Positions 1 to 39,323 of a stretch of DNA of 39,323 bases are shown in pieces (positions within the stretch are counted from its first letter, which is position 1; each line of letters begins with the position of its first letter). The notes beneath the pieces are model-generated. The model had not been told where the DNA came from. It saw only the letters and a program-made list of their open reading frames with translations, and ran no database searches. The DNA is from an uncultured Bacteroidales bacterium (GTDB lineage Bacteria > Bacteroidota > Bacteroidia > Bacteroidales > UBA932), in NCBI GenBank assembly GCA_900318015.1, contig ONJB01000014.1, positions 1 through 39,323 of the forward strand, given 5' to 3'. The position numbers were made by a program, and so were the translations under genes.

Positions 1-99
1 TAATTATCTGTATTTTTGTTGCCGAAAGATATAAACAAAGGTAATAAAAAGAATGGAAAAAGAAGTCGTGTACAATCGAGTTGTCGACTATTCCGCCAC
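1..99. repeat. 99-bp terminal redundancy, copy 1 (circular contig overlap)
   Basis: The first 99 bases are identical to the last 99 (39225-39323). Both copies hold the -7 box of the early promoter and the first codons of the first early gene. An exact overlap of this length at contig ends is the usual sign of a circular molecule assembled with a k-mer of that size, so this is one locus seen twice, not a biological long terminal repeat. Confidence 0.95.
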
Positions 100-916: not shown

Positions 917-961
917 AAGCACAACTTTCATCCGTGTTCGTTTTGGTTACGACGAACGAGC

Positions 962-991
962 CCTCTCCGGGTGCGAGCTCCGAGAGGTTTT
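962..991 (+). terminator. Candidate attenuator or terminator in the early leader
   Basis: CCTCTC (962-967) pairs with GAGAGG (982-987). The GG/CC inside extends the stem across one bulged C, with a 9-nt loop, and TTTT follows at 988-991. It lies in the 100-bp gap between early genes 3 and 4, where conditional termination would tune downstream early expression. Confidence 0.4.
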
Positions 992-1020
992 ACCAAGAGA
1001 AACTCAAACACTTTTCAAAT

Positions 1021-1224
1021 ATGAATGCAGAATGTACAGCCAAGCCCTCGGGGCTCTATTCGCTGAAGCAGGCTCGGGAGATCATCGGATGCTCGACCAG
1101 GGCGCTCGTGAACTACCGGAACTCCGGACTCATACCGACCCATGAGCGGAACGGGAACAAGCAGAAGGTCATCGTCGGAAAGGACATCATCGCCTTCATG
1201 AACCGCCACCACCTGGTAAGGTAA
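1021..1224 (+). CDS. MerR-like helix-turn-helix DNA-binding protein (67 aa)
   Basis: The start at 1021 is chosen because the repeated leader (ACACTTTTCAAAT) abuts it; the 934 alternative only adds unnatural sequence. The 67-aa protein reads GLYSLKQAREIIGCSTRALV followed by NYRNSGLIPTHERNGNKQKV. That is a winged helix-turn-helix of the MerR/excisionase (HTH_17) type: helix-turn-helix at about residues 13-32, then a wing with a basic tip. Proteins of this size act as excisionases or transcriptional regulators in Bacteroides mobile elements. Here it is early and far from the integrase, so either role is possible. Confidence 0.65.
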   Translation: MNAECTAKPSGLYSLKQAREIIGCSTRALVNYRNSGLIPTHERNGNKQKVIVGKDIIAFMNRHHLVR

Positions 1225-21916: not shown

Positions 21917-24247
21917 ATGGCCAAGCGACTACGATATTCCGGGGAATTTTTGTCCCTGTCTGGTGACGTCTGGAGGTGTGAGATCCTCCAGGAGGCCGTA
22001 TCTGCATATCCTTCGGTCGGCGAGCTCGTCTTCCCGGCCGATGAGCCGCTTTCCATCGAATGGGACGCGCGCGCTCCGGAGGAGCCCGTCTGCGGATCCA
22101 TGGCGACGCTCACCATCGAATCTCCCGGCGACCGCACCTACGCGGACCTGTACACCGAGATTCCCGGGGCCATCCGGCTGGATGTCTACCGGAACAACGC
22201 CCTGTACTGGAGCGGCTGCCTGGACACCGAGACTTACAGCGAACCCTACGACCGCGGCTCCCACTACGACGTGGAGCTGACCTTCTACGACTTCGGCATG
22301 CTCGGCCGGATTCCCTACGACCTCACGGGGAAGAAGACGCTGCGCGAAGTCCTGGAGGGCGCCCTCGCCGCCGCCGGAATCAACTACGGCTCCATCAACG
22401 AGAGCTACACGTCCACGAAGTTCACGGACGACACGTCGGTGACCCTCGCGGCGCTCTCCATCTCTTCGGATAACTTCATCGACGAGGACGATGTGGCCTT
22501 CGACTGGGAGAAGGTCCTGGGCGGCATTCTCCAGCCGCTCGCCCTGAAGGTCATCCAGAAGGCTGGCATCATCTGGGTGTACGACATCAACGGTCTGTAC
22601 GGGCAGAAATCCTCGACCGTCCTCGTGGAATGGGACGGCGTGGGTCAGCGGATGGACGCCGGGCAGGTGTTCAACAATCTCCGCGTCACCTTCTCCCCGT
22701 ATTCCTCCGCGAAGCTGGGGAAGGAATTCGAGTACGGCGACACCTTCGGGCCGGAATACACGAACCTGGGCTCGAGCGAGATGGTCCCGGACCGCTACTC
22801 CTACTATCCGAACTACTCCGACGCGAAGCGCCCGAACGGATCCTGGGACTACAACCTCATCGACTTCACGATCTTCCGCTCCTCTGACGCAACCAAGTGC
22901 AAGGGCCTCGCCGCCATCGGCGGCAACAACCGCTTCTTCAAGACCTACCCGATGCTCGGCGGCGCAGAGGCGGAAGGCGTGGCTGTCGGTTTCTACACGG
23001 GGGGCCACGGCTCCCTGACGACCGGCTGGCCGGTCCTGAAGGGCGTCCAGCCCGGCGCCCATCCGCAGAACGTGGCGCTCAGGACCGAGCGGATCTACCT
23101 GCCGCCCATGAGCTCGGACGACCAGAAGAACAACTTCGTCCGAATCGTCATGGAGGCGCTCGCCGACGTCCGGTACAATCCGTTCGAGGATGCGCCGAAG
23201 GACGAGGAGGGCAACGACAACGACATCTTCGACTCCTTCAAGAGCTTCGGCTCCCAGGCCTTCGTGCCGGTCGATATCGTCCTGTACAACGCGAACGGGA
23301 CGGCCATTTATCACTACGAGAACAAGTACATCACGGCGAACGGACATCCGGGCGACTCCATCGCGAACTGTTCCGCCACCAAGCATGCCAACAGCACCAC
23401 GCGGGACGGATGGAAGAGCGGGAACGCCAGCTTCGGCGACGCCTGGCTGGCCTACTACGACGGCGAGCTCGACCTCGTGACGGGGCAGGGCGTCGGCGGA
23501 TGGAAGGCGAACCGGCAGAATTTCGGCAAGCCCTGGAGCGAGGGCCGGCAGGAGTCCAAGCGCAAGCTGTACTACTACGACATCAACGGGAACAAGCAGG
23601 ACTGGTGGTTCTTCGAGAGCTTCAAGAAGGCCCCCGACGGCCAGTTCATCCCGTACCCGCCCGTCGAGGGCTACCTGGAAATCCGCGTCTACAACGGCAT
23701 TTACATCTTCGACGACCTGGACCACTTCGACCAGACCCTCGCGGGCGAGTTCTACAACATGGGCCTGTACCAGAAAATGCGCTGGCTCCTGTACAAGGCT
23801 CCGGAGGTCTCCGTCGTGCGCCGCACACTCACCTTCGACGATGCGGAGCTGGACGATATCGAATACTCCGGTGTGTGCAATCCCAATGCGAAGGAGGACC
23901 TGGACCTCGAGACTATCTGCGGAACGTCCGGGTCCGTATGCCCGACCGCAAAGGGAATCCTGATGCGGACCTCGAACGGGGCGCAGCTGCAGCAGCTGAA
24001 GCGCGCCGGTCGCACCGAGACGGCCGAGCAGCTGCTTATCGGCACGCTGTTCTCGCAGTACGCCGCGCGGAAGACCGTCCTGTCCGGCGAGGTGCAGATG
24101 GACCCCGGCGGGCTTACCCTGTACAGGGAGGCCGCCCAGGGGGACGGTGTGAAGCTGCTGATGACCTCGGAAGTGCAGCATGTCAGGGAGGAGATGTCCG
24201 AGGCGGAGCTCCTCGAAGTCAGACCCGATGAATATACGGCTGAGTAA
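21917..24247 (+). CDS. Distal tail/baseplate protein (776 aa)
   Basis: A long beta-rich protein (MAKRLRYSGEFLSLSGDVWR; ADEPLSIEWDARAPEEPVCG; LYWSGCLDTETYSEPYDRGS) that follows the tape measure, where siphophages encode distal-tail and hub proteins. The N-terminal 130 residues resemble the Dit/Tal-like tail proteins of Bacteroidales prophages, in which an Asp/Glu-rich 'l.i.....' core is followed by 'Y.G.l.....'. The rest is Tyr/Asp/Gly-rich and probably surface exposed. It is followed by ATGG-overlapping fibre genes. The exact hub role is inferred from order. Confidence 0.65.
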   Translation: MAKRLRYSGEFLSLSGDVWRCEILQEAVSAYPSVGELVFPADEPLSIEWDARAPEEPVCGSMATLTIESPGDRTYADLYTEIPGAIRLDVYRNNALYWSGCLDTETYSEPYDRGSHYDVELTFYDFGMLGRIPYDLTGKKTLREVLEGALAAAGINYGSINESYTSTKFTDDTSVTLAALSISSDNFIDEDDVAFDWEKVLGGILQPLALKVIQKAGIIWVYDINGLYGQKSSTVLVEWDGVGQRMDAGQVFNNLRVTFSPYSSAKLGKEFEYGDTFGPEYTNLGSSEMVPDRYSYYPNYSDAKRPNGSWDYNLIDFTIFRSSDATKCKGLAAIGGNNRFFKTYPMLGGAEAEGVAVGFYTGGHGSLTTGWPVLKGVQPGAHPQNVALRTERIYLPPMSSDDQKNNFVRIVMEALADVRYNPFEDAPKDEEGNDNDIFDSFKSFGSQAFVPVDIVLYNANGTAIYHYENKYITANGHPGDSIANCSATKHANSTTRDGWKSGNASFGDAWLAYYDGELDLVTGQGVGGWKANRQNFGKPWSEGRQESKRKLYYYDINGNKQDWWFFESFKKAPDGQFIPYPPVEGYLEIRVYNGIYIFDDLDHFDQTLAGEFYNMGLYQKMRWLLYKAPEVSVVRRTLTFDDAELDDIEYSGVCNPNAKEDLDLETICGTSGSVCPTAKGILMRTSNGAQLQQLKRAGRTETAEQLLIGTLFSQYAARKTVLSGEVQMDPGGLTLYREAAQGDGVKLLMTSEVQHVREEMSEAELLEVRPDEYTAE

Positions 24248-29739: not shown

Positions 29740-29775
29740 ATGAAAGTCAAATTCACCAAACTCGCAGCGCTATGA
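29740..29775 (+). CDS. Mini-ORF, possible leader peptide (11 aa)
   Basis: ATG 29740 opens an 11-codon frame (MKVKFTKLAAL) whose stop overlaps the next start (ATGA, 29772-29775). It could couple translation to the fibre gene or be a remnant of an N terminus. Weak evidence. Confidence 0.25.
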   Translation: MKVKFTKLAAL

Positions 29776-31472
29776 GCAACAAACAGGGAAACATCAAGGA
29801 CTATGACGGTAACTACGTCTCGCCGACTACCGTCACGCACCTCGTATATGACGCCGCGAAGAACCAGGCTCTCTCGCAGACCCTGGCAGACACCCCGGAC
29901 CGGACCGCCCTGGGCTTTCCGGTTTTCTCCACGGTGACCGCCTATTCCGCCGGCGACATCGTCTTCTACAACAACGGACTCTGGAAGTTCACCGCCGACC
30001 ACGATGCCGGTGCATGGAACGGCGCCCAGGTTGAGGCCTACAGCGTCAAGGACTTCGTGGACGACTCCGTTCCCGAAGACGCCCAGCTGGCCGAGAACAT
30101 CAAGAGCTGGGCTAAGCGTGACGCTCTGAATGTCGGCGACGACTGGACGGATGCCATCCGGACCACGGCCGGCGACCAGAGCGTCGATTCCGCGAAGGGC
30201 GCCCGGATCCTGAGTATCGTCGCCCAGACCGATTTCGCCGCGTCGGCATTCAAGACCACCGGCTTCAACCTGCTTCATGATGCCGTGGGGGTCGGTGATG
30301 GATTCTATTTCCCCGTCCCCGCCCTGGCCTTCGGTGTCTTCGGTACGGCCGCTCAGCCGAACGGCGTCCTGTTCACGAGCAACGCCAATCAGAAGCTCAC
30401 CCCGACGGTCCGCTTCAAAGCCCTGTCCGCCGGCGTTCCTTCTTCCGTCAATGACGGCAGCGCCTGCGCCTACACGGATTCGAACGGCTACCGCTTCTTC
30501 ACCTGCACGGAGCCCGGCTACATGATCGTGAGCGGAATCGCCCTCGCGAACACCTGCGCGCATATCGCCTGGAGCCGCCGCTACGACGAATTCATCTCGC
30601 CGACCGAGGCTTCGGACGCCGGCAGCTCCATCTCCCTGTCCACCATCCTTGCCGCCGTCCATAGCGACGTGTCGAAGCTGCTGACCGTCGGCCGTGGCGC
30701 CGGTCTCGTTTCCGACCGTATCGACTTCGACGGGACGAAGGCCGTCTGGACGCGCAAGGTGGCTCGGGTGCAGCCTACCTGGACGCGGAGCGAGCTGGAT
30801 GCAGAAACCGGCCTGTACACCTACACCGCCGCCATCTCCGCGATGGCTTCCGGAGGCCTCGCCGAATTCGAGGGTGCGAACAAGCCCGCCATCTCCGTGG
30901 AGGGCACCACGCTGACCTACTACAGCGCGAGTTCCACGGCAGAGACAGCCTACGTCAAGTACGAGTTGGCCACCCAGGCCACCGGCAACGTCTCCCTGAG
31001 CAACCAGCTGACCATCGAGGACTGGGGCCTGGAGATCCTCGTCGGCGCCTCCGGTTCCGCGATCGTCACCACCCAGTACGCTCAGAGTTATCCGGACGCG
31101 CTGGCCCAGTTGCTCTCCGAAATCGACCGGAAGATATCCCTCGTCATCAGCGAGGCCATCGCCGCCATGAACGAACGGTTCTCAATCGTGGAGGCCGCGC
31201 TCCGCGATCCTCGCCAGCGTATCAGCCTGTCCGTGGAGAATCTCGACGCCGCGAACATCTCTCGCTTCGGCGTTCCCCTTTGCCTGGAGAGCTCCGTCGC
31301 CGGCGCTCCTTCTGCCGCTAATGTCCCTGACAACTGGGACCAGAAGACGATGGGGGTCTGGGCTGGCTATCCTCTCTTCGTCGGTCAGATCTATTCCGAC
31401 AAGTCGAGCGGTAAGATTTACATGGCCTACCGCGTCAACGCCTTGACGGGCGACTGGAAACTGCTGAACTAA
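29772..31472 (+). CDS. Tail fibre/tip protein upstream of the DGR target (566 aa)
   Basis: The N-terminal 90 residues include the fibre-attachment-type stretch STVTAYSAGDIVFYNNGLWK with FTADHDAGAWNG (an aromatic, Gly-rich motif similar to carbohydrate-binding repeats). Then follow a beta-rich middle and a C-terminal helix-turn region (LAQLLSEIDRKISLVISEAI), ending with GVWAGYPLFVGQIYSDKSSG and a final strand WKLLN. No signal peptide. The final ~70 residues resemble fibre tips. It is the last fibre before the diversified protein, with 14 bp between the two genes. Confidence 0.65.
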   Translation: MSNKQGNIKDYDGNYVSPTTVTHLVYDAAKNQALSQTLADTPDRTALGFPVFSTVTAYSAGDIVFYNNGLWKFTADHDAGAWNGAQVEAYSVKDFVDDSVPEDAQLAENIKSWAKRDALNVGDDWTDAIRTTAGDQSVDSAKGARILSIVAQTDFAASAFKTTGFNLLHDAVGVGDGFYFPVPALAFGVFGTAAQPNGVLFTSNANQKLTPTVRFKALSAGVPSSVNDGSACAYTDSNGYRFFTCTEPGYMIVSGIALANTCAHIAWSRRYDEFISPTEASDAGSSISLSTILAAVHSDVSKLLTVGRGAGLVSDRIDFDGTKAVWTRKVARVQPTWTRSELDAETGLYTYTAAISAMASGGLAEFEGANKPAISVEGTTLTYYSASSTAETAYVKYELATQATGNVSLSNQLTIEDWGLEILVGASGSAIVTTQYAQSYPDALAQLLSEIDRKISLVISEAIAAMNERFSIVEAALRDPRQRISLSVENLDAANISRFGVPLCLESSVAGAPSAANVPDNWDQKTMGVWAGYPLFVGQIYSDKSSGKIYMAYRVNALTGDWKLLN

Positions 31473-31486
31473 AAACATCAGAAGCT

Positions 31487-32785
31487 ATGATCAAGAAATT
31501 TACCAACGAAGCCGCTTACGCGGCAGCCGGTAAGCCGGTAACCGAGAGCCGGGTGGCGCAGATCGCCGACTCCAACGAGGTAAAGATAGATGGCGTGAAC
31601 GTCCTCGTGCCGGTTCCCGGAGACGGCGACGCCGTCTTTATCGACGAGAGCGGCAAGGATCGCTTCGTCCGTTTCGATACGATCAACAAGGCCCTCCTGC
31701 CGGCAGGCTGGACGCACGTCGGCTATGCGTTCGCGCAGCGCGGAAAGACCTACAAGGTCCTGGACAAGAATTTCCCGTCCGCCGGCTTCCAGTGGGTCGG
31801 CGGCTGGCAGCACGCTATCACGGCAATCTCCGCCACGACTATCAAGTTCTGGCTGAAGATGAAGGGCGACTATGCGACCTTCGTCCCTATCGAGGTGACC
31901 CTCACGTCTGCCGAGATCAATGCGACCACGGCCGCCGAAATCGACGCGGCCATCGACGCGGCCGGAAATGCCGGCAACGTAGGCTACGCCAATCACGGCT
32001 GGTGGGCTTTCCTGGACGGCGACCGCATCATCGTACAGTGCGACTTCAACGGAGACTATCGTCAGAACGCCACCTCTGACGGCACCCACGCCCTGGTGGG
32101 CTGCACGATGCAGCACATCACCTATCGCGACATGCCGTCCAACTCCTATGTCATGAGGAGCACCCTGACCTCCACGACATCCGCCTACATGAACATCGAG
32201 AAGGGGTACGCCTACGCATCGGTCTCCGGTTCGACGCCCAACGCGAACGTCCCCATCGGTTCCGCTTCGACCGTGAACAAGAACTCCTTCGACAATTCTG
32301 AGTACTGCGCCGATCTCCGCGCCTTTTATGGAGACTATCGCACCTATTTCCTGGCGCAGATGGTCAAGTATCCGCATCCGGACTACGGCGCCTTCGCGAT
32401 GATCGACGCGGATGAGATGACCCGCCGCTACGCGAACCTGACATTTACGAAGAAGGACGGCGAGACGACCGGCTTCCTTTTCCCGGCCCTTCATACGGCG
32501 GTCTCCGTCGGCTATGGCACGGGGAAGTACGCTCAGGGCAGATGGCACCTCTCCGACATCACGGACGGAGTCGAGTATATGCACGACGAGACGATGGCGA
32601 AGATCCAGGAGGCGCAGAGGAGGATGAACACAACCCTCCTCACCCATACCGTCACCCGCTGGTTCGCCCGTCGGTACAACGTCACCAACGCTTGGTTTTT
32701 CACCTCGACGCGCGGCACCCTCAGCTCCAACGGCGTCAACCACGCTTATCGCTGTCAGGCGGTCACGCTTTGCCGACTGGATTAA
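31487..32785 (+). CDS. DGR target (diversified tail-tip) protein (432 aa)
   Basis: The final 45 residues carry the variable repeat (residues 388-427) and only five more residues, LCRLD, follow. Around the VR, NAWFFTSTRGTL...RCQAV resembles the C-terminal C-type-lectin fold of DGR target proteins, with fixed scaffold residues and variable positions on loops. Residues 1-190 (GKPVTESRVAQIADSNEVKI; DGVNVLVPVPGDGDAVFIDE) are beta-rich. The gene follows the tail fibres and lies directly upstream of the Avd-like gene, TR and RT, the usual order. Likely a receptor-binding adhesin whose tip is retargeted by the DGR. Confidence 0.88.
   Translation: MIKKFTNEAAYAAAGKPVTESRVAQIADSNEVKIDGVNVLVPVPGDGDAVFIDESGKDRFVRFDTINKALLPAGWTHVGYAFAQRGKTYKVLDKNFPSAGFQWVGGWQHAITAISATTIKFWLKMKGDYATFVPIEVTLTSAEINATTAAEIDAAIDAAGNAGNVGYANHGWWAFLDGDRIIVQCDFNGDYRQNATSDGTHALVGCTMQHITYRDMPSNSYVMRSTLTSTTSAYMNIEKGYAYASVSGSTPNANVPIGSASTVNKNSFDNSEYCADLRAFYGDYRTYFLAQMVKYPHPDYGAFAMIDADEMTRRYANLTFTKKDGETTGFLFPALHTAVSVGYGTGKYAQGRWHLSDITDGVEYMHDETMAKIQEAQRRMNTTLLTHTVTRWFARRYNVTNAWFFTSTRGTLSSNGVNHAYRCQAVTLCRLD
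32648..32767 (+). repeat. VR: DGR variable repeat (VR)
   Basis: 120 nt, aligned without gaps to the TR (33331-33450). Of 120 positions, 105 match and 15 differ. All 15 differences are at adenines of the TR (A to C, G or T). All 85 non-adenine positions are identical; the TR has 35 adenines. The changes alter 11 of 15 AAY codons, for example AAT to TTT (residue 404) and AAC to CGC (409), TCC (414) and GGC (416). The pattern is a direct record of A-specific mutagenic retrohoming. Confidence 0.97.
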
Positions 32786-32796
32786 ACTTAATCTTC

Positions 32797-32823
32797 GCCG
32801 GGGCCGCTCCGTCGGTCCCCGGC
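32797..32823 (+). promoter_or_regulatory. Hairpin downstream of VR
   Basis: GCCGGGG (32797-32803) pairs with CCCCGGC (32817-32823). The inner CCG/CGG pair adds three base pairs with one bulged T, around a 6-nt loop. It sits 29 bp after the VR end, before the Avd-like start (32843). In known DGRs a hairpin or cruciform just downstream of VR assists homing. It might instead be a terminator or attenuator, but no T-run follows. Confidence 0.6.
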
Positions 32824-32842
32824 ATACCCCCGTAACGTCACG

Positions 32843-33328
32843 ATGGCAAGAGGAAACAAGGCGCAACGGGACCCCTTCGTGGATATCCCGGCAGAGGCGA
32901 AGGAAATGCTCCGCCATATCCATCCGGCCGTACAGCACATGCCGAAGGCTGAACGGATGGACGGCGCGGGCGCCGAGCTCAAGCGCGCCGCCTATGCCAT
33001 CATCAGGGAATACTATATGGCCTACTATGCCCCGAGCCGCAAGGTGAAGGGGGAGCATATCCTGCAGATGGTCGGCTGGTACGGTCATCTGCAGGCGGCC
33101 TTGGAGATCGCTTGCCGGCAAGGGGTCCTGATGGACCGCTTCCGGCTTCCGATCGCCGAAAGGATGGAGAGGATCGAGGAAGGTATACTCAAGTGGAACA
33201 GCTCGATGTCGGCCCAGCGTCAGGAATCGGCCAATGCTCCGGAGGAAGATGTCTCCGGCGCGGCCGGTCAGCGACTATGGGTAAAAGGGGACGGGGTGTC
33301 ATTTACACCAGCATCAGACTCGTCCTAA
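32843..33328 (+). CDS. avd: Avd-like DGR accessory protein (161 aa)
   Basis: An all-helical protein with HIHPAVQHMPKAERMDGAGA, LKRAAYAIIREYYMAYYAPS, GEHILQMVGWYGHLQAALEI and LPIAERMERIEEGILKWNSS, matching the four-helix bundle of Avd proteins. Avd forms a pentamer that binds RT and TR RNA and is required for mutagenic cDNA synthesis in known DGRs. It lies between the target and TR, and its stop (33326-33328) is two bases before the TR. The disordered acidic tail (about residues 125-161) is longer than in the Bordetella phage protein. Confidence 0.75.
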   Translation: MARGNKAQRDPFVDIPAEAKEMLRHIHPAVQHMPKAERMDGAGAELKRAAYAIIREYYMAYYAPSRKVKGEHILQMVGWYGHLQAALEIACRQGVLMDRFRLPIAERMERIEEGILKWNSSMSAQRQESANAPEEDVSGAAGQRLWVKGDGVSFTPASDSS

Positions 33329-33330
33329 AC

Positions 33331-33450
33331 ACCGTCAACCGCTGGTTCGCCCGTCGGTACAACGTCAACAACGCTTGGAATTTCAACTCGACGAACGGCA
33401 ACCTCAACAACAACAACGTCAACAACGCTAATCGCTGTCAGGCGGTCACG
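33331..33450 (+). repeat. TR: DGR template repeat (TR)
   Basis: 120 nt between the Avd-like gene and RT. It is dense in AAC/AAT codons: 15 AAY codons in the VR frame, with four AAC in a row at 33406-33417. AAY codons cannot mutate at A to a stop, so any A-substitution stays open. It ends GCTGTCAGGCGGTCACG like the VR. Beyond, both continue with TTTrCCGA (TR TTTACCGA at 33453-33460; VR TTTGCCGA at 32769-32776) offset by one base, an IMH*/IMH-like divergence. Confidence 0.95.
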
Positions 33451-33485
33451 AATTTACCGAGAAAGTCTTTATACGCTGCGACAAG

Positions 33486-34697
33486 ATGGATAGAAGGACG
33501 CGCTTCGCACATCTCACGGATGTCTACTTCGACACCCGCAGGAACAAGCGCTACGGCCGGGATTCGATGGTCTACGAGATGTCGTGGACCGCGAACCTGG
33601 TGCGCGACTTCCGCGACCGTGAGGACCGAACGCTCCGAATCCTTCACAACTATGCCTTCCTCGTCTCCGTCCCAAAATGGAGGGAGATCATGGCGACCGA
33701 ATTCAAGGGGCGCCTGGCGGATCACGAGATCTGCGAGGTTGTCATACCGGCAGCGAACGCAGTCTTGTCTCCGTATTCCTACAACAATAGGAAAGGGATG
33801 GGTGCCCAGGCGGCGATCAATCGGCTTATCGAGAACATTCTCATCGCCAGCGACAGGTACACGTCGCCAGCCAGAATCATCAAGCTCGACCTGAAGGGGT
33901 ATTTCCCTTCGGCACGGTGGGACTACGCCGAGGAGTGCCTTAGCCGCGTGATAGACATCTCCGGCTACGAGGATAAGGATTACCTGAAATGGCTCACGAT
34001 GGTCGCGGTCCACTGCAACCCTGCGGCTCACTGTGAGCTCCGAACCCCGCGCTACCTATGGAAGGAGCACATCGCTCCGGACAAATCCCTCCTGGCTAAG
34101 CCGGAAGGCGAGGGTGCGGCCATTGGTCGCCTCATCTGGCAGACCGCGATGGGCCTGTATGTGAATGACGAGATTCGGTGGCTCACGGAGGAGTGCGGCA
34201 TCCTTACGGTCTGCTTTGTGGACGACATCGTGATGGCTGTACCTGAGCATCTTCACGGCTACGCCCTGGGCCTCATTCCTGAGCTCCGCCGCCGGCTGGC
34301 CGAGAAGGGCGTCCGCCTCAATGAGAAGAAGTTCTACGACCAGCCTTTCGGTCATGGCGTGGAATTCCTCGGTTCGCATGTCAAGCCGTTCAGGATTCAT
34401 CTGAACGACAGCTCATACGGACGCGCCCTCTCCAGGGTGCACGAGCTGAACCGCGTAGTCGCGAAGGAGGAGCATCTGGACGACTTCGTCGCCTCTATCA
34501 ACAGCTACACCGGACTAATGAAGAACCGGAACGAATACCGCCGCATCGGGGAGCTTCGTGAGAAGGTGGACCCGTCCTGGTGGGAATTTGTCGAATGGGA
34601 CGACCGTAGGCAGTGCGTGCGCTGCCGCCCCGGCTTCACCCGCAACGAACGCTTAAACCGAAAATATCATTTGAACCTTAAAAGAAAACCGCTATGA
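33486..34697 (+). CDS. DGR reverse transcriptase (403 aa)
   Basis: Motif A contains KLDLKGYFPS (Asp135). The DGR-specific motif 4 reads IGRLIWQ (residues 213-219), where the family usually has I/L/V-G-x-x-x-S-Q. The catalytic FVDD is at 244-247 (CFVDDIVMAVP). The fingers segment MGAQAAINRLIENILIA, the thumb region and Arg-rich C terminus (RRQCVRCRPGFTRNERLNRK) follow. The DGR RT copies TR RNA into mutagenised cDNA. It starts 35 bp after the TR, and the 5' half-site of its mRNA may be part of the template RNA. Length (403 aa) is normal. Confidence 0.93.
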   Translation: MDRRTRFAHLTDVYFDTRRNKRYGRDSMVYEMSWTANLVRDFRDREDRTLRILHNYAFLVSVPKWREIMATEFKGRLADHEICEVVIPAANAVLSPYSYNNRKGMGAQAAINRLIENILIASDRYTSPARIIKLDLKGYFPSARWDYAEECLSRVIDISGYEDKDYLKWLTMVAVHCNPAAHCELRTPRYLWKEHIAPDKSLLAKPEGEGAAIGRLIWQTAMGLYVNDEIRWLTEECGILTVCFVDDIVMAVPEHLHGYALGLIPELRRRLAEKGVRLNEKKFYDQPFGHGVEFLGSHVKPFRIHLNDSSYGRALSRVHELNRVVAKEEHLDDFVASINSYTGLMKNRNEYRRIGELREKVDPSWWEFVEWDDRRQCVRCRPGFTRNERLNRKYHLNLKRKPL

Positions 34698-35200
34698 ACG
34701 AAGAGACAAGAGAACAGCAGAACGAACTGGAAACTCAGCGCCTGAACATCGAGGCGCGGATGGCATCCGTCCTTCCGTCCGTCATCGACTATGTGACCGG
34801 CCTGTCCGGTTTCAAGAACAAGTATCCCGCCGCAGCTGCCGAATACGCCGCAGCGAAAGAGGAGGAAGCTGATGTTGAGGTCGGCCTCTCCGAGTGGAAG
34901 TTTCGCATCGGGGAGTGGGTGAACGCCGGCGACGAGCTCCTCTGCGACGGGAGGATCTACGAGGTTCTCCAGGGTCACTACCTCCAGGAGGACTGGAAGC
35001 CCGGCGAGGTGCCTGCCCTCTACCGACTCAAGAGCGACCCCGGAGAGGAGTGGCCGGAATGGATCCAGCCGACCGGCGCGCATGACACCTACGCCAAGGG
35101 TGCAAAGGTGACCTACAAGGGCCAGCACTATGTCTCCCTCATCGACAACAACTCCTGGAGCCCCGAGGCCTATCCTGCGGGCTGGGAGCTCCAGCCTTAA
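34694..35200 (+). CDS. Carbohydrate-binding (CBM5/12-type) protein (168 aa)
   Basis: The C-terminal 50 residues, EWIQPTGAHDTYAKGAKVTY then KGQHYVSLIDNNSWSPEAYP and AGWELQP, match the chitin-binding/CBM5/12 module (W.qp.gAHDaY..Gd.V.y.G..Y.s..d.N.W.P). The N-terminal part is helical (ETREQQNELETQRLNIEARM). It probably binds cell-surface polysaccharide and could belong to the tail tip or help endolysin targeting. It overlaps the RT stop (ATGA) and precedes the lysis genes. Confidence 0.75.
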   Translation: MNEETREQQNELETQRLNIEARMASVLPSVIDYVTGLSGFKNKYPAAAAEYAAAKEEEADVEVGLSEWKFRIGEWVNAGDELLCDGRIYEVLQGHYLQEDWKPGEVPALYRLKSDPGEEWPEWIQPTGAHDTYAKGAKVTYKGQHYVSLIDNNSWSPEAYPAGWELQP

Positions 35201-36797: not shown

Positions 36798-36859
36798 TTG
36801 CATTATTTGGAAATTAATTGGCGAATTGTGCAATTTCTTTGCATAATTCGGAAATTTAA
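36798..36859. repeat. Two imperfect direct repeats by the integrase stop
   Basis: TTGCATTATTTGGAAATTAA (36798-36817) and TTGCATAATTCGGAAATTTAA-like sequence (36839-36859) are about 41 bp apart in an AT-rich patch. The second overlaps the integrase stop. They may bind a regulator or integrase/Xis. Confidence 0.4.
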
Positions 36860-38097
36860 CCGGCATTTCCGGAAAGCTGCTTCTTCAGCTCGTCGAAGCT
36901 CCGGGCGAACATATCCTCGACGGTCTGCTTCCTCTTCCCGTAGAGGACATAGTCGATGACCTGCCGGTTCGCCCTGTCGATACGGGAGATGTCGAAGTCG
37001 ATGTAGATGTCGGTGACGGTCTTCCCGACGCCGTGACCGGCGGCCGCGACGATCGTCTCCTTCGGTATCTCGAGCTCCGTCGCTATCGTCATCCAGGAGT
37101 GGCGGGTCCAGTACATCGAAATCCTCGGGAGGCCCAGCTTCGCGGCCACGTCCTTCAGGACGTTGTTCACCCGGGAGGTCCAGTGGCAGGTCTTCGCGTA
37201 GGTGTCCAGGGGGTTGAGGAGATATCTCTTGCCGGCCATCCGCTCGAAGATCGCCTGGCATTCCGGCTCCATCTTAATGGTGTACGGCTTGTGCGTCTTC
37301 GCCCTCCAGAACTCCAGGCGGCCGTCCACGATGTCGGTGGCGTGGAGGAGGTCCTCGGTGTTCATTCCTATCAGAAAGAAGCTGGCGAAGAAGAAGTCGA
37401 CGTACTTGCGCTGCCAGTCCGGGAGCTCGGCGTTGTACAGGCGCCGCAGGTTCTCCGCCGAGAGGTGGCGCTTCCTCGTCACCTCGTTCCTGATGGGATA
37501 GCAGAGGTAGGGGTAGTGCTGCGTGATGCCGTGCTTGCGGGCGTAGTTGAACACGGCGCGGATGTTCCTCAGGTGGATGTTCCTGGCGTTCTTCTTCGGG
37601 GAGGTCCTGGCGAGGAAGGCGTCGAAGCGGTCAAGCCATCCGATGCCGACATCCTCGAAGGCGAGGCGCTCGGCCTTCGGGTCGAAGGCGAGGATCCTGG
37701 CGACGGTCGCGAGGTAGATCTCCTTCGTGCGGGGTTTCAGCTTCGGCTGGTCCGCGTAGACGCGGAAGGTTTCCAGGAGGCGCGCCGGCCTCCGCTCGAC
37801 GGGTGACATCTCTTCCAGGATGCGGTCGCGGACCTCGCGGGCGGAGAGTCCATCGAGCTTCCGGCTCCGCTGCAGTTCGAGGAGGATGGCGTCGGCGTTT
37901 GCCTTCTTCAGTTCGGCGGAGAGCTGAACGGCCTGGGACTTCGCCTTCTGGGCGGCGACGTCCCAGTCGGAGGGGAGGAGGCGGATGCCGGTGGAGAGAT
38001 AGGAGACGGTGCGGTCCTTGGTGATGGAGATCTTGAGCAGCGCGGATTTTCCGGGCCCGGTCTTCCTGGTGTCGAGGTAGAACTTGGTGGTGATCAT
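36856..38097 (-). CDS. int: Tyrosine recombinase (phage integrase), about 413 aa
   Basis: The start is set at 38097 (MITTKFYLDTRK), where the typical Bacteroidales SAM-like N-terminal begins; the longer frame to 38160 would run through attP arms. The arm-binding domain (KSALLKISITKDRTVSYLST) and core-binding domain precede the catalytic part. There, FLIGMNTEDLLHA has Asn where Arg I is expected, as IntDOT is known to lack this Arg. Then come Lys in FWRAKTHKPYTI, MYWTRHSWMT (Tyr in the His position, Arg332 kept), AAGHGV (His355) and nucleophile DIYIDFD (Tyr365). It integrates the phage at tRNA-Ser. Confidence 0.9.
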   Translation of the reverse strand: MITTKFYLDTRKTGPGKSALLKISITKDRTVSYLSTGIRLLPSDWDVAAQKAKSQAVQLSAELKKANADAILLELQRSRKLDGLSAREVRDRILEEMSPVERRPARLLETFRVYADQPKLKPRTKEIYLATVARILAFDPKAERLAFEDVGIGWLDRFDAFLARTSPKKNARNIHLRNIRAVFNYARKHGITQHYPYLCYPIRNEVTRKRHLSAENLRRLYNAELPDWQRKYVDFFFASFFLIGMNTEDLLHATDIVDGRLEFWRAKTHKPYTIKMEPECQAIFERMAGKRYLLNPLDTYAKTCHWTSRVNNVLKDVAAKLGLPRISMYWTRHSWMTIATELEIPKETIVAAAGHGVGKTVTDIYIDFDISRIDRANRQVIDYVLYGKRKQTVEDMFARSFDELKKQLSGNAG

Positions 38098-38120
38098 GAT
38101 TTGAGAAGGTGTTTGAGAAA

Positions 38121-38141
38121 GTCGCAAACAAGTCGCAAACA
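38121..38141. promoter_or_regulatory. Integrase arm-type sites, left pair (P arm)
   Basis: Two direct copies of GTCGCAAACA at 38121-38130 and 38132-38141, 11 bp apart, one helical turn. The same pair occurs on the other side of the core (38377-38397). Symmetric placement around the core supports integrase arm binding. Confidence 0.65.
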
Positions 38142-38144
38142 AAA

Positions 38145-38180
38145 TGCACCTATTTTGCACATATTTGCACGAAAATGCAC
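38145..38180. repeat. Phased TGCAC repeats in attP
   Basis: TGCAC occurs at 38145, 38156, 38166 and 38176, spaced 11, 10 and 10 bp, with inverted GTGCA at 38217-38221 and 38226-38230. Helical phasing suggests a protein (integrase, Xis or host factor) bound on one face. Confidence 0.55.
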
Positions 38181-38258
38181 GACTGTTGCCTTTTTTTTAT
38201 GCGAAGCAGGGCGGTCGTGCAAATAGTGCAACCGATTGATTATCGGTGTTTTATGTCG

Positions 38259-38324
38259 CGGAGAGAGCGAGATTCGAACTCGCGATACCCTTTTGGGGTA
38301 CACACGCTTTCCAGGCGTGTGTAC
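38259..38324 (-). other. attP: attP core: 3' part of tRNA-Ser(GGA)
   Basis: Read on the minus strand, the sequence contains a tRNA-Ser anticodon arm (CACGC-CTGGAAA-GCGTG, anticodon GGA; 38303-38319), the long serine variable arm (TACCCC-AAAA-GGGTA), the T arm (GCGAG-TTCGAAT-CTCGC; 38267-38283) and the acceptor 3' strand TCTCTCC plus discriminator G (38259-38266). The 5' half (acceptor and D arm) is absent. The phage therefore carries the part that restores the host tRNA on integration. A 10-bp palindrome (GTACACACGC, 38298-38324) spans the anticodon stem. Confidence 0.88.
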
Positions 38325-39211: not shown

Positions 39212-39242
39212 TTTGGAGTTTCCGTAATTATCTGTATTTTTG
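39212..39242 (+). promoter_or_regulatory. Early (rightward) promoter, Bacteroidetes type
   Basis: TTTG at 39212-39215 and TATTTTTG at 39235-39242 are separated by 19 bp. This is the Bacteroidetes primary sigma consensus (-33 TTTG, -7 TAnnTTTG). The -7 box recurs at 11-18 because of the terminal redundancy. Transcription would begin about 7 bp downstream and reach the first early start codon (position 53 of the circle) after a leader of roughly 25-30 nt. The promoter lies divergently just upstream of the repressor gene, as expected for the lytic promoter a repressor controls. Confidence 0.75.
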
Positions 39243-39323
39243 TTGCCGAAAGATATAAACAAAGGTAATAAAAAGAATGGAAAAAGAAGTCGTGTACAAT
39301 CGAGTTGTCGACTATTCCGCCAC
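39225..39323. repeat. 99-bp terminal redundancy, copy 2
   Basis: Exact copy of bases 1-99. It contains a second, truncated copy of the start of the first early gene (ATG at 39277). Joining the two copies gives a 39,224-bp circle. Confidence 0.95.

What the first reader, a model, noticed from the sequence alone, without database searches (positions are those of the whole stretch)
31487..34697. Complete diversity-generating retroelement with strict A-specific signature
VR 32648-32767 and TR 33331-33450 are 120 nt each. They align without gaps and differ at 15 sites, every one an adenine in the TR. None of the 85 non-A positions differ. Target, Avd-like protein, TR and RT are in standard order and intact. 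Established for DGRs: TR RNA is copied with errors at A and replaces VR. Here it lies in a temperate tail module, so host-range switching is the likely use.
Basis: partly seen in the sequence, partly recalled or inferred. Interest (0 to 1): 0.93.

Follow-up and report, generated by a model that had tools for sequence, protein, structure and literature searches.

The report
Phage DGR with unusual RT motif
A bacterial virus from Bacteroidales bacteria carries a gene-diversifying cassette that rewrites one probable surface-binding protein; the cassette is of a well-known type, but its copying enzyme has an unusual residue in a motif thought to control its errors.

Summary
VR 32648-32767 and TR 33331-33450 are gapless 120-mers with 15 differences, all opposite TR adenines; 0 of 85 other sites differ. 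The cassette target-VR / Avd / TR / RT is open and in the order of Bordetella phage BPP-1. The target model has a C-type-lectin-like C-terminal part; the Avd model matches BPP-1 Avd. The window is one circular 39.2-kb phage contig with an integrase and a 62-bp identity to a host tRNA-Ser gene that is empty in this assembly, so 'temperate' is well supported. No near copy of this lineage was found. In 8 of 12 evaluable pairs of related cassettes TR is identical and VR differs only opposite TR adenines. New is a feature of the RT: motif 4 reads IGRLIWQ instead of the usual (I/V/L)GxxxSQ. WQ occurs in 27 of 110 aligned RTs, and W and S cassettes have the same adenine specificity and base spectrum (p = 0.56). 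The TR-to-RT spacer is 31-35 nt, against 144 nt in BPP-1. A DGR with a modest RT variant; host-range switching remains inferred.

The parts
31487..32785 (+). DGR target gene, 432 aa; predicted C-type-lectin-like C-terminal part carrying VR
32648..32767 (+). variable repeat (VR), codons 388-427 of the target
32768..32771 (+). CTTT facing TR AATT: likely IMH versus IMH* boundary, recurrent in relatives
32797..32823 (+). G+C-rich stem-loop 29 nt after VR, like the inverted repeat after VR in BPP-1
   Evidence: DNA fold of 32768-32842 -13.8 kcal/mol, z -2.13; a perfect stem of 7 bp or more within 110 nt after the repeat in 9 of 12 loci looked at, BPP-1 included, none in L080, L082, L120
32843..33328 (+). 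Avd-like accessory protein, 161 aa, helical bundle
33331..33450 (+). template repeat (TR), 35 adenines
33486..34697 (+). DGR reverse transcriptase, 403 aa
   Evidence: PF00078 7.1e-8; phrog_1423 1.9e-34; only PDB sequence match at E 0.01 is BPP-1 RT 8ub7, 9.8e-13
34122..34142 (+). RT motif 4, IGRLIWQ (W218, codon 34137-34139, where GxxxSQ has Ser)
36856..38160 (-). tyrosine-recombinase-type integrase
   Evidence: phrog_1 integrase 5.9e-16; PF13102 5e-12 and PF17293 6.6e-8
38258..38319 (+). putative attP core: 62 bp identical to the 3' part of host tRNA-Ser(GGA), G000:C8:46462-46523
934..1224 (+). excisionase/HTH-like gene
   Evidence: phrog_66 7.4e-4; HTH_17 8.6e-6, just under cut-off
1..99 (.). 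99-bp repeat identical to 39225-39323: contig closes as a circle of 39,224 bp
   Evidence: seen again

Best explanation
A diversity-generating retroelement of a temperate tailed phage of Bacteroidales, most likely functional. RNA of the TR is copied by RT with Avd into cDNA that carries errors at adenines; the cDNA replaces VR in the last 45 codons of the target, which changes the binding face of a lectin-like domain of a protein encoded at the end of the tail module. Shown here: anatomy, A-only differences (15 of 35 TR adenines changed), protein kinships, temperate equipment, VR turnover opposite TR adenines in relatives. Inferred: current activity of this copy, the retrohoming mechanism (from BPP-1), receptor binding and host-range use. 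The RT belongs to a deep group in which the Ser of the GxxxSQ motif is Trp, without a visible change in adenine specificity.
For: VR/TR pair exact and A-only. 21 of 22 first-round viral relatives have an A-only VR/TR pair beside the RT; the 22nd, L007, holds only 815 nt upstream of its RT. In a wider set of 86 loci, 78 had a detectable repeat and in 78 of 78 the mismatches fall against A although all four bases were tried; the 8 without one hold under 850 nt upstream of the RT. Near-identical pairs with the W motif: L141/L142 (VR opposite A 23/40, other VR 0/84, TR 0/124, rest 8/1852) and L139/L140 (28/37, 0/78, 0/115, 69/2381); with the S motif L110/L111 (7/39 and 0 elsewhere). L017/L018 differ at 19 of 9,900 sites, all in VR, 18 opposite TR A and 1 opposite TR C. 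Avd and target folds. Integrase and att. W motif in 27 of 110 aligned RTs; S versus W spectrum p = 0.56 over 1576 and 897 adenine sites. The careful tree needs 2 changes of the W label (2-2 over the 5-95% bootstrap range) and rejects all W rows as one side of a branch, p-AU 9.8e-7.
Against: No second copy of this lineage was found, so turnover of this VR is not shown directly. Foldseek alone gave no PDB match at E <= 0.001 for the target, and no Pfam or PHROG family hit it credibly. The bAvd Pfam hit is below cut-off. The 144-nt BPP-1 spacer has no counterpart of that size here: from 33454 to the RT ATG are 31 nt, and no conserved RNA structure or clear extra synonymous constraint was found.
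Confidence: 0.95

Rival explanations
1. A decayed or dormant DGR: the 15 differences are old, and the W in motif 4 reflects a damaged enzyme.
For: No near copy of this lineage to show current turnover. Earlier authors thought departures from SQ could be inactivations or sequencing errors (PMC4244168 and PMC3521204, passages seen).
Against: All three genes open, and 0 of 85 non-A sites differ between TR and VR. W cassettes have 5 of 1957 non-A mismatches, and two near-identical W pairs differ at most of their VR sites opposite A with TR unchanged.
Confidence: 0.04
2. The cassette is active but the target is not a receptor binder; it varies some other surface protein, for example one shown on the lysogen.
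For: No tail-fibre family hit for the target. Best structural match is a Bacteroides fimbrial protein, 4eps.
Against: The gene sits at the end of the tail module, before the lysis genes. Authors of B. uniformis phages whose target matches the same structure presume a role in tropism (PMC8143477, passages).
Confidence: 0.15
3. A chance or gene-duplication repeat with no retroelement behind it.
For: None beyond the fact that two copies alone could arise by duplication.
Against: A-only signature, P 6.9e-10, next to an RT and Avd; same layout in relatives.
Confidence: 0.005

Closest known systems
Bordetella phage BPP-1 DGR (mtd-avd-TR-brt)
   Different: RT 28% identical; IGSLTSQ versus IGRLIWQ; TR-RT spacer 144 nt by the record's annotation versus 31-35 nt
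Bacteroides uniformis phages F1, F2, F4 (Bacuni)
   Same: F2 has bAvd, RT, amidase and recombinase in like order; the target is matched by its authors to BACOVA_04982, which is 4eps, our best structural match
   Different: RT 31-33% identical; F2 RT has SQ (IGNLFSQ); its authors could not show lysogeny
Hankyphage of Bacteroides dorei
   Same: DGR in a temperate Bacteroidales phage (PMC6199706, passages)
   Different: Not compared by sequence here
Uncultivated viral contigs L003, L004, L005 (IMG/VR)
   Same: RT 64-69% identical, WQ motif, same cassette layout
   Different: Target 58-61% identical

Membership tests
Diversity-generating retroelement | TR/VR pair with mismatches confined to TR adenines | tested here: met
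   15 of 15 differences at A, 0 of 85 non-A
Diversity-generating retroelement | VR at the 3' end of a target gene with a C-type-lectin fold | tested here: met
Diversity-generating retroelement | Homologous RT with intact catalytic DD | tested here: met
   FVDD; 8ub7 the only PDB sequence match at E 0.01
Diversity-generating retroelement | (I/V/L)GxxxSQ in RT motif 4 (usual, not universal: 90% of 155 in PMC3521204, passages) | tested here: not met
   IGRLIWQ: I, G and Q kept, S replaced by W. Read as a variant, since published exceptions exist and have A-only VRs
Diversity-generating retroelement | Accessory Avd protein | tested here: met
   phrog_3206 and fold match to 4dwl
Diversity-generating retroelement | IMH/IMH* difference and stem-loop after VR | tested here: met
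   CTTT/AATT recurrent; stem-loop 32797-32823. Presence only; function not tested
Diversity-generating retroelement | Structured spacer between TR and RT that primes cDNA (as in BPP-1) | tested here: inconclusive
   Spacer far shorter; consensus fold of 11 flanks has 0 pairs, single-sequence fold z -2.79
Diversity-generating retroelement | Active mutagenic retrohoming | not testable with these tools
   Needs reads or an assay; relatives show VR turnover
Temperate tailed phage | Head, portal, terminase and tail genes plus integrase and att site | tested here: met

The most novel reading that the evidence does not exclude
Two features taken from BPP-1 are not needed for adenine-specific diversification. 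A deep group of Bacteroidales phage DGRs (W here, A elsewhere, with a later return to S in one branch) works with the Ser of GxxxSQ replaced, so the adenine error must be set by other residues, the conserved Gly and Gln of the motif among the candidates. And in this group the TR is followed almost at once by the RT gene, so the RNA element that starts cDNA synthesis must lie inside the RT coding sequence, or be made differently from BPP-1.
Probability: 0.4. Interest if true: 0.6.

Novelty: new variant of a known kind. Interest (0 to 1): 0.4.

Why it matters
As a DGR it is ordinary: many are known in Bacteroidales phages. Its use is as a natural experiment. It has been proposed that the SQ motif sets the RT's errors at adenine; the same paper noted that 15 of 155 elements depart from SQ yet show A exchanges, so SQ 'may not be absolutely necessary', but held that these might be sequencing errors or recent inactivations (PMC3521204, passages); a later survey took its five departures as probable inactivation or sequencing error (PMC4244168, passages). 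Here whole groups of apparently working DGRs lack the Ser, with conserved W or A, which makes that escape unlikely. Motif-based finders can miss such elements, as reported for an SP variant (PMC11054128, passages). The circular contig plus an empty tRNA-Ser site also suggests a host for an uncultivated phage.

Tried and rejected

Results against or qualifying: the three-way S/W/A spectrum test differs (p = 0.0005); the A group has fewer substitutions. Sites are treated as independent there and several rows are near copies. L017's last 69 bases differ from L016 and L018 at 35 sites, taken as a contig-end effect and left out of the 9,900-base count. Of 13 pairs tried, 12 could be evaluated: 8 have TR identical and no non-A VR change; 4 more distant ones (L137/L139, L085/L087, L082/L025, L128/L129) differ also in TR and at non-A VR sites. 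In one search three loci (L003, L023, L024) also held other repeat pairs with mismatches against G or C, not next to the RT. The search for repeats selects segments whose mismatches face one base, so it favours specific repeats of whatever base. Motif frequencies are biased: one pattern required W or S, and my extraction script required G and one of Q, P, H, A, D at the ends of the motif. Rows dropped: L132, L147, L151 (no RT extracted), L121 (duplicate) and 8 loci without a detectable repeat; 40 of 110 RTs, SQ rows all, left out of the quick tree and 17 of its 70 rows out of the careful tree. My first motif script misread six loci as 'GH' and L025 as 'RA'; corrected on alignment columns. Papers: passages or search listings only, none read whole. 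A search for 'GxxxWQ', 'IGxxxWQ' and 'WQ motif' found no DGR paper that holds them in a library without most subscription journals; supplementary tables were not searched, and the NAR paper looked up by DOI was not held, so an earlier report of WQ is not excluded.

Full report
Observation. The register can be stretched to 124 nt, but the two further A differences (VR CTTT against TR AATT) recur in relatives at the same place (19 of 30 loci tallied, of 71), which fits the fixed IMH/IMH* boundary of BPP-1 (named in PMC12875486, passages).

Genome. The window is the whole contig C35 of a 3.2-Mb, 106-contig genome. Its first 99 bases equal its last 99, so it closes as a 39,224-bp circle. It encodes terminase, portal, protease, capsid, tail tube and tape measure, endolysin, a replication-initiation-like protein and, on the minus strand, an integrase. 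Beside the integrase, 38258-38319 is identical over 62 bp to G000:C8:46462-46523, the 3' part of a tRNA-Ser(GGA) gene at L164:1501-1589, minus strand. That tRNA gene is whole, with other sequence on both sides, inside a 61.8-kb contig. So the phage has a tRNA-Ser attachment site, and the assembled host copy is empty. Since tRNA genes are conserved, this supports a host of this kind rather than proving this strain.

Relatives. The RT found 22 viral contigs (49-69% identity) and 3 Bacteroidales genome contigs. 21 of the 22 viral loci have an A-only pair next to the RT, all four bases tried; the 3 genome loci do too, A only tried. With a profile, 250 viral stretches encode relatives; the best 80 were kept. 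Of 86 loci analysed, 78 gave a repeat, and in 78 of 78 the one base that takes the mismatches is A; the 8 without a repeat hold under 850 nt upstream of the RT. Near copies give the strongest evidence for mechanism. L017/L018 differ at 19 of 9,900 sites, all in VR, 18 opposite TR A and one opposite TR C. Of 12 pairs evaluated, 8 have TR identical and VR changed only opposite A: L110/L111 differ at 7 VR sites and nowhere else in 2,724 aligned bases; L141/L142 and L139/L140 at 23 of 40 and 28 of 37 A-sites, with 8 of 1852 and 69 of 2381 changes outside the repeats. The other 4 pairs are more diverged and differ in TR as well. None of these is this lineage itself: no near copy turned up in genus or family genomes (18 of 200 genus genomes and 11 of 398 family genomes have an RT match at the thresholds used, the own genome included; best other identities 37% and 53%), in phage records or in viral contigs. 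The tools warn that very near records may be left out.

RT motif. Motif 4 of the window RT is IGRLIWQ. On alignment columns, 110 RTs read SQ 69, WQ 27, AQ 14; the sample is biased and holds near copies. On a careful tree of 53 rows with the motif columns left out, the W label needs 2 changes (2-2 over the 5-95% bootstrap range), and all W rows as one side of a branch are rejected (p-AU 9.8e-7). The simplest reading is one S-to-W change at the base of a group that holds the window, then a return to S in a nested branch; the direction rests on taking the outside SQ and AQ rows as root, so it is inferred. W cassettes (24) have 51% of TR adenines substituted and 5 of 1957 non-A mismatches; S cassettes (41) 48% and 9 of 3410; the base spectra do not differ (p = 0.56). 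The AQ group (12) has 40% and 0 of 769, and the three-way spectrum test does differ (p = 0.0005). The DiGReF survey lists SP, SH, NQ, PA, AQ and VQ among 15 of 155 departures, notes that these still show A exchanges, and proposes that SQ has a role in fidelity (PMC3521204, passages). WQ is not in that list, and text searches found no DGR paper with it, within the limits of that library.

Spacer. From the A-only end of TR to the RT's ATG the window has 31 nt; by the same script the nearest in-frame ATG lies 10-50 nt after the TR segment in 61 of 69 loci without BPP-1 (a few of the rest have a shortened TR segment), whereas BPP-1 has 144 nt by its annotation. In BPP-1 a structured spacer recruits RT-Avd and primes cDNA (PMC12875486, passages). 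No conserved structure was found after TR in 11 W-type flanks, though the window's own flank folds better than shuffles (z -2.79), and RT start codons show no clear extra synonymous constraint. Where this group primes its cDNA is open.

Judgement. Host-range switching is likely by analogy but untested. This is a well-known kind of element with a variant RT motif; the interest lies in using such natural variants to ask which RT residues set adenine-specific error.

Noticed in passing
window 33451-33485: TR is followed by the RT gene after only 31-35 nt, against 144 nt in BPP-1; short in most relatives. Where cDNA is primed is unexplained.
   Followed up: partly
window 38258-38319; L164:1501-1589: Putative attP core identical to the 3' end of host tRNA-Ser(GGA), which is empty in the assembly while the phage contig is circular.
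   Followed up: yes
window 29772-31472 and 34694-35200: Two proteins flanking the cassette with CBM_5_12 carbohydrate-binding modules (9e-12 for the second; the first, 8e-5, is below cut-off).
   Followed up: no
window 21917-24247: 776-aa tail-module protein almost fully matched by phrog_30639, unknown function (E 2.4e-254).
   Followed up: no
L144-L158 (most) and L161: A second group of DGR RTs with AQ in motif 4; the 12 AQ cassettes with a repeat are A-only but with a lower substitution share and a different spectrum.
   Followed up: partly
G000:C41:55042-55797: Another reverse transcriptase in the same genome, 624-aa frame, PF00078 2.2e-14; type not determined.
   Followed up: no
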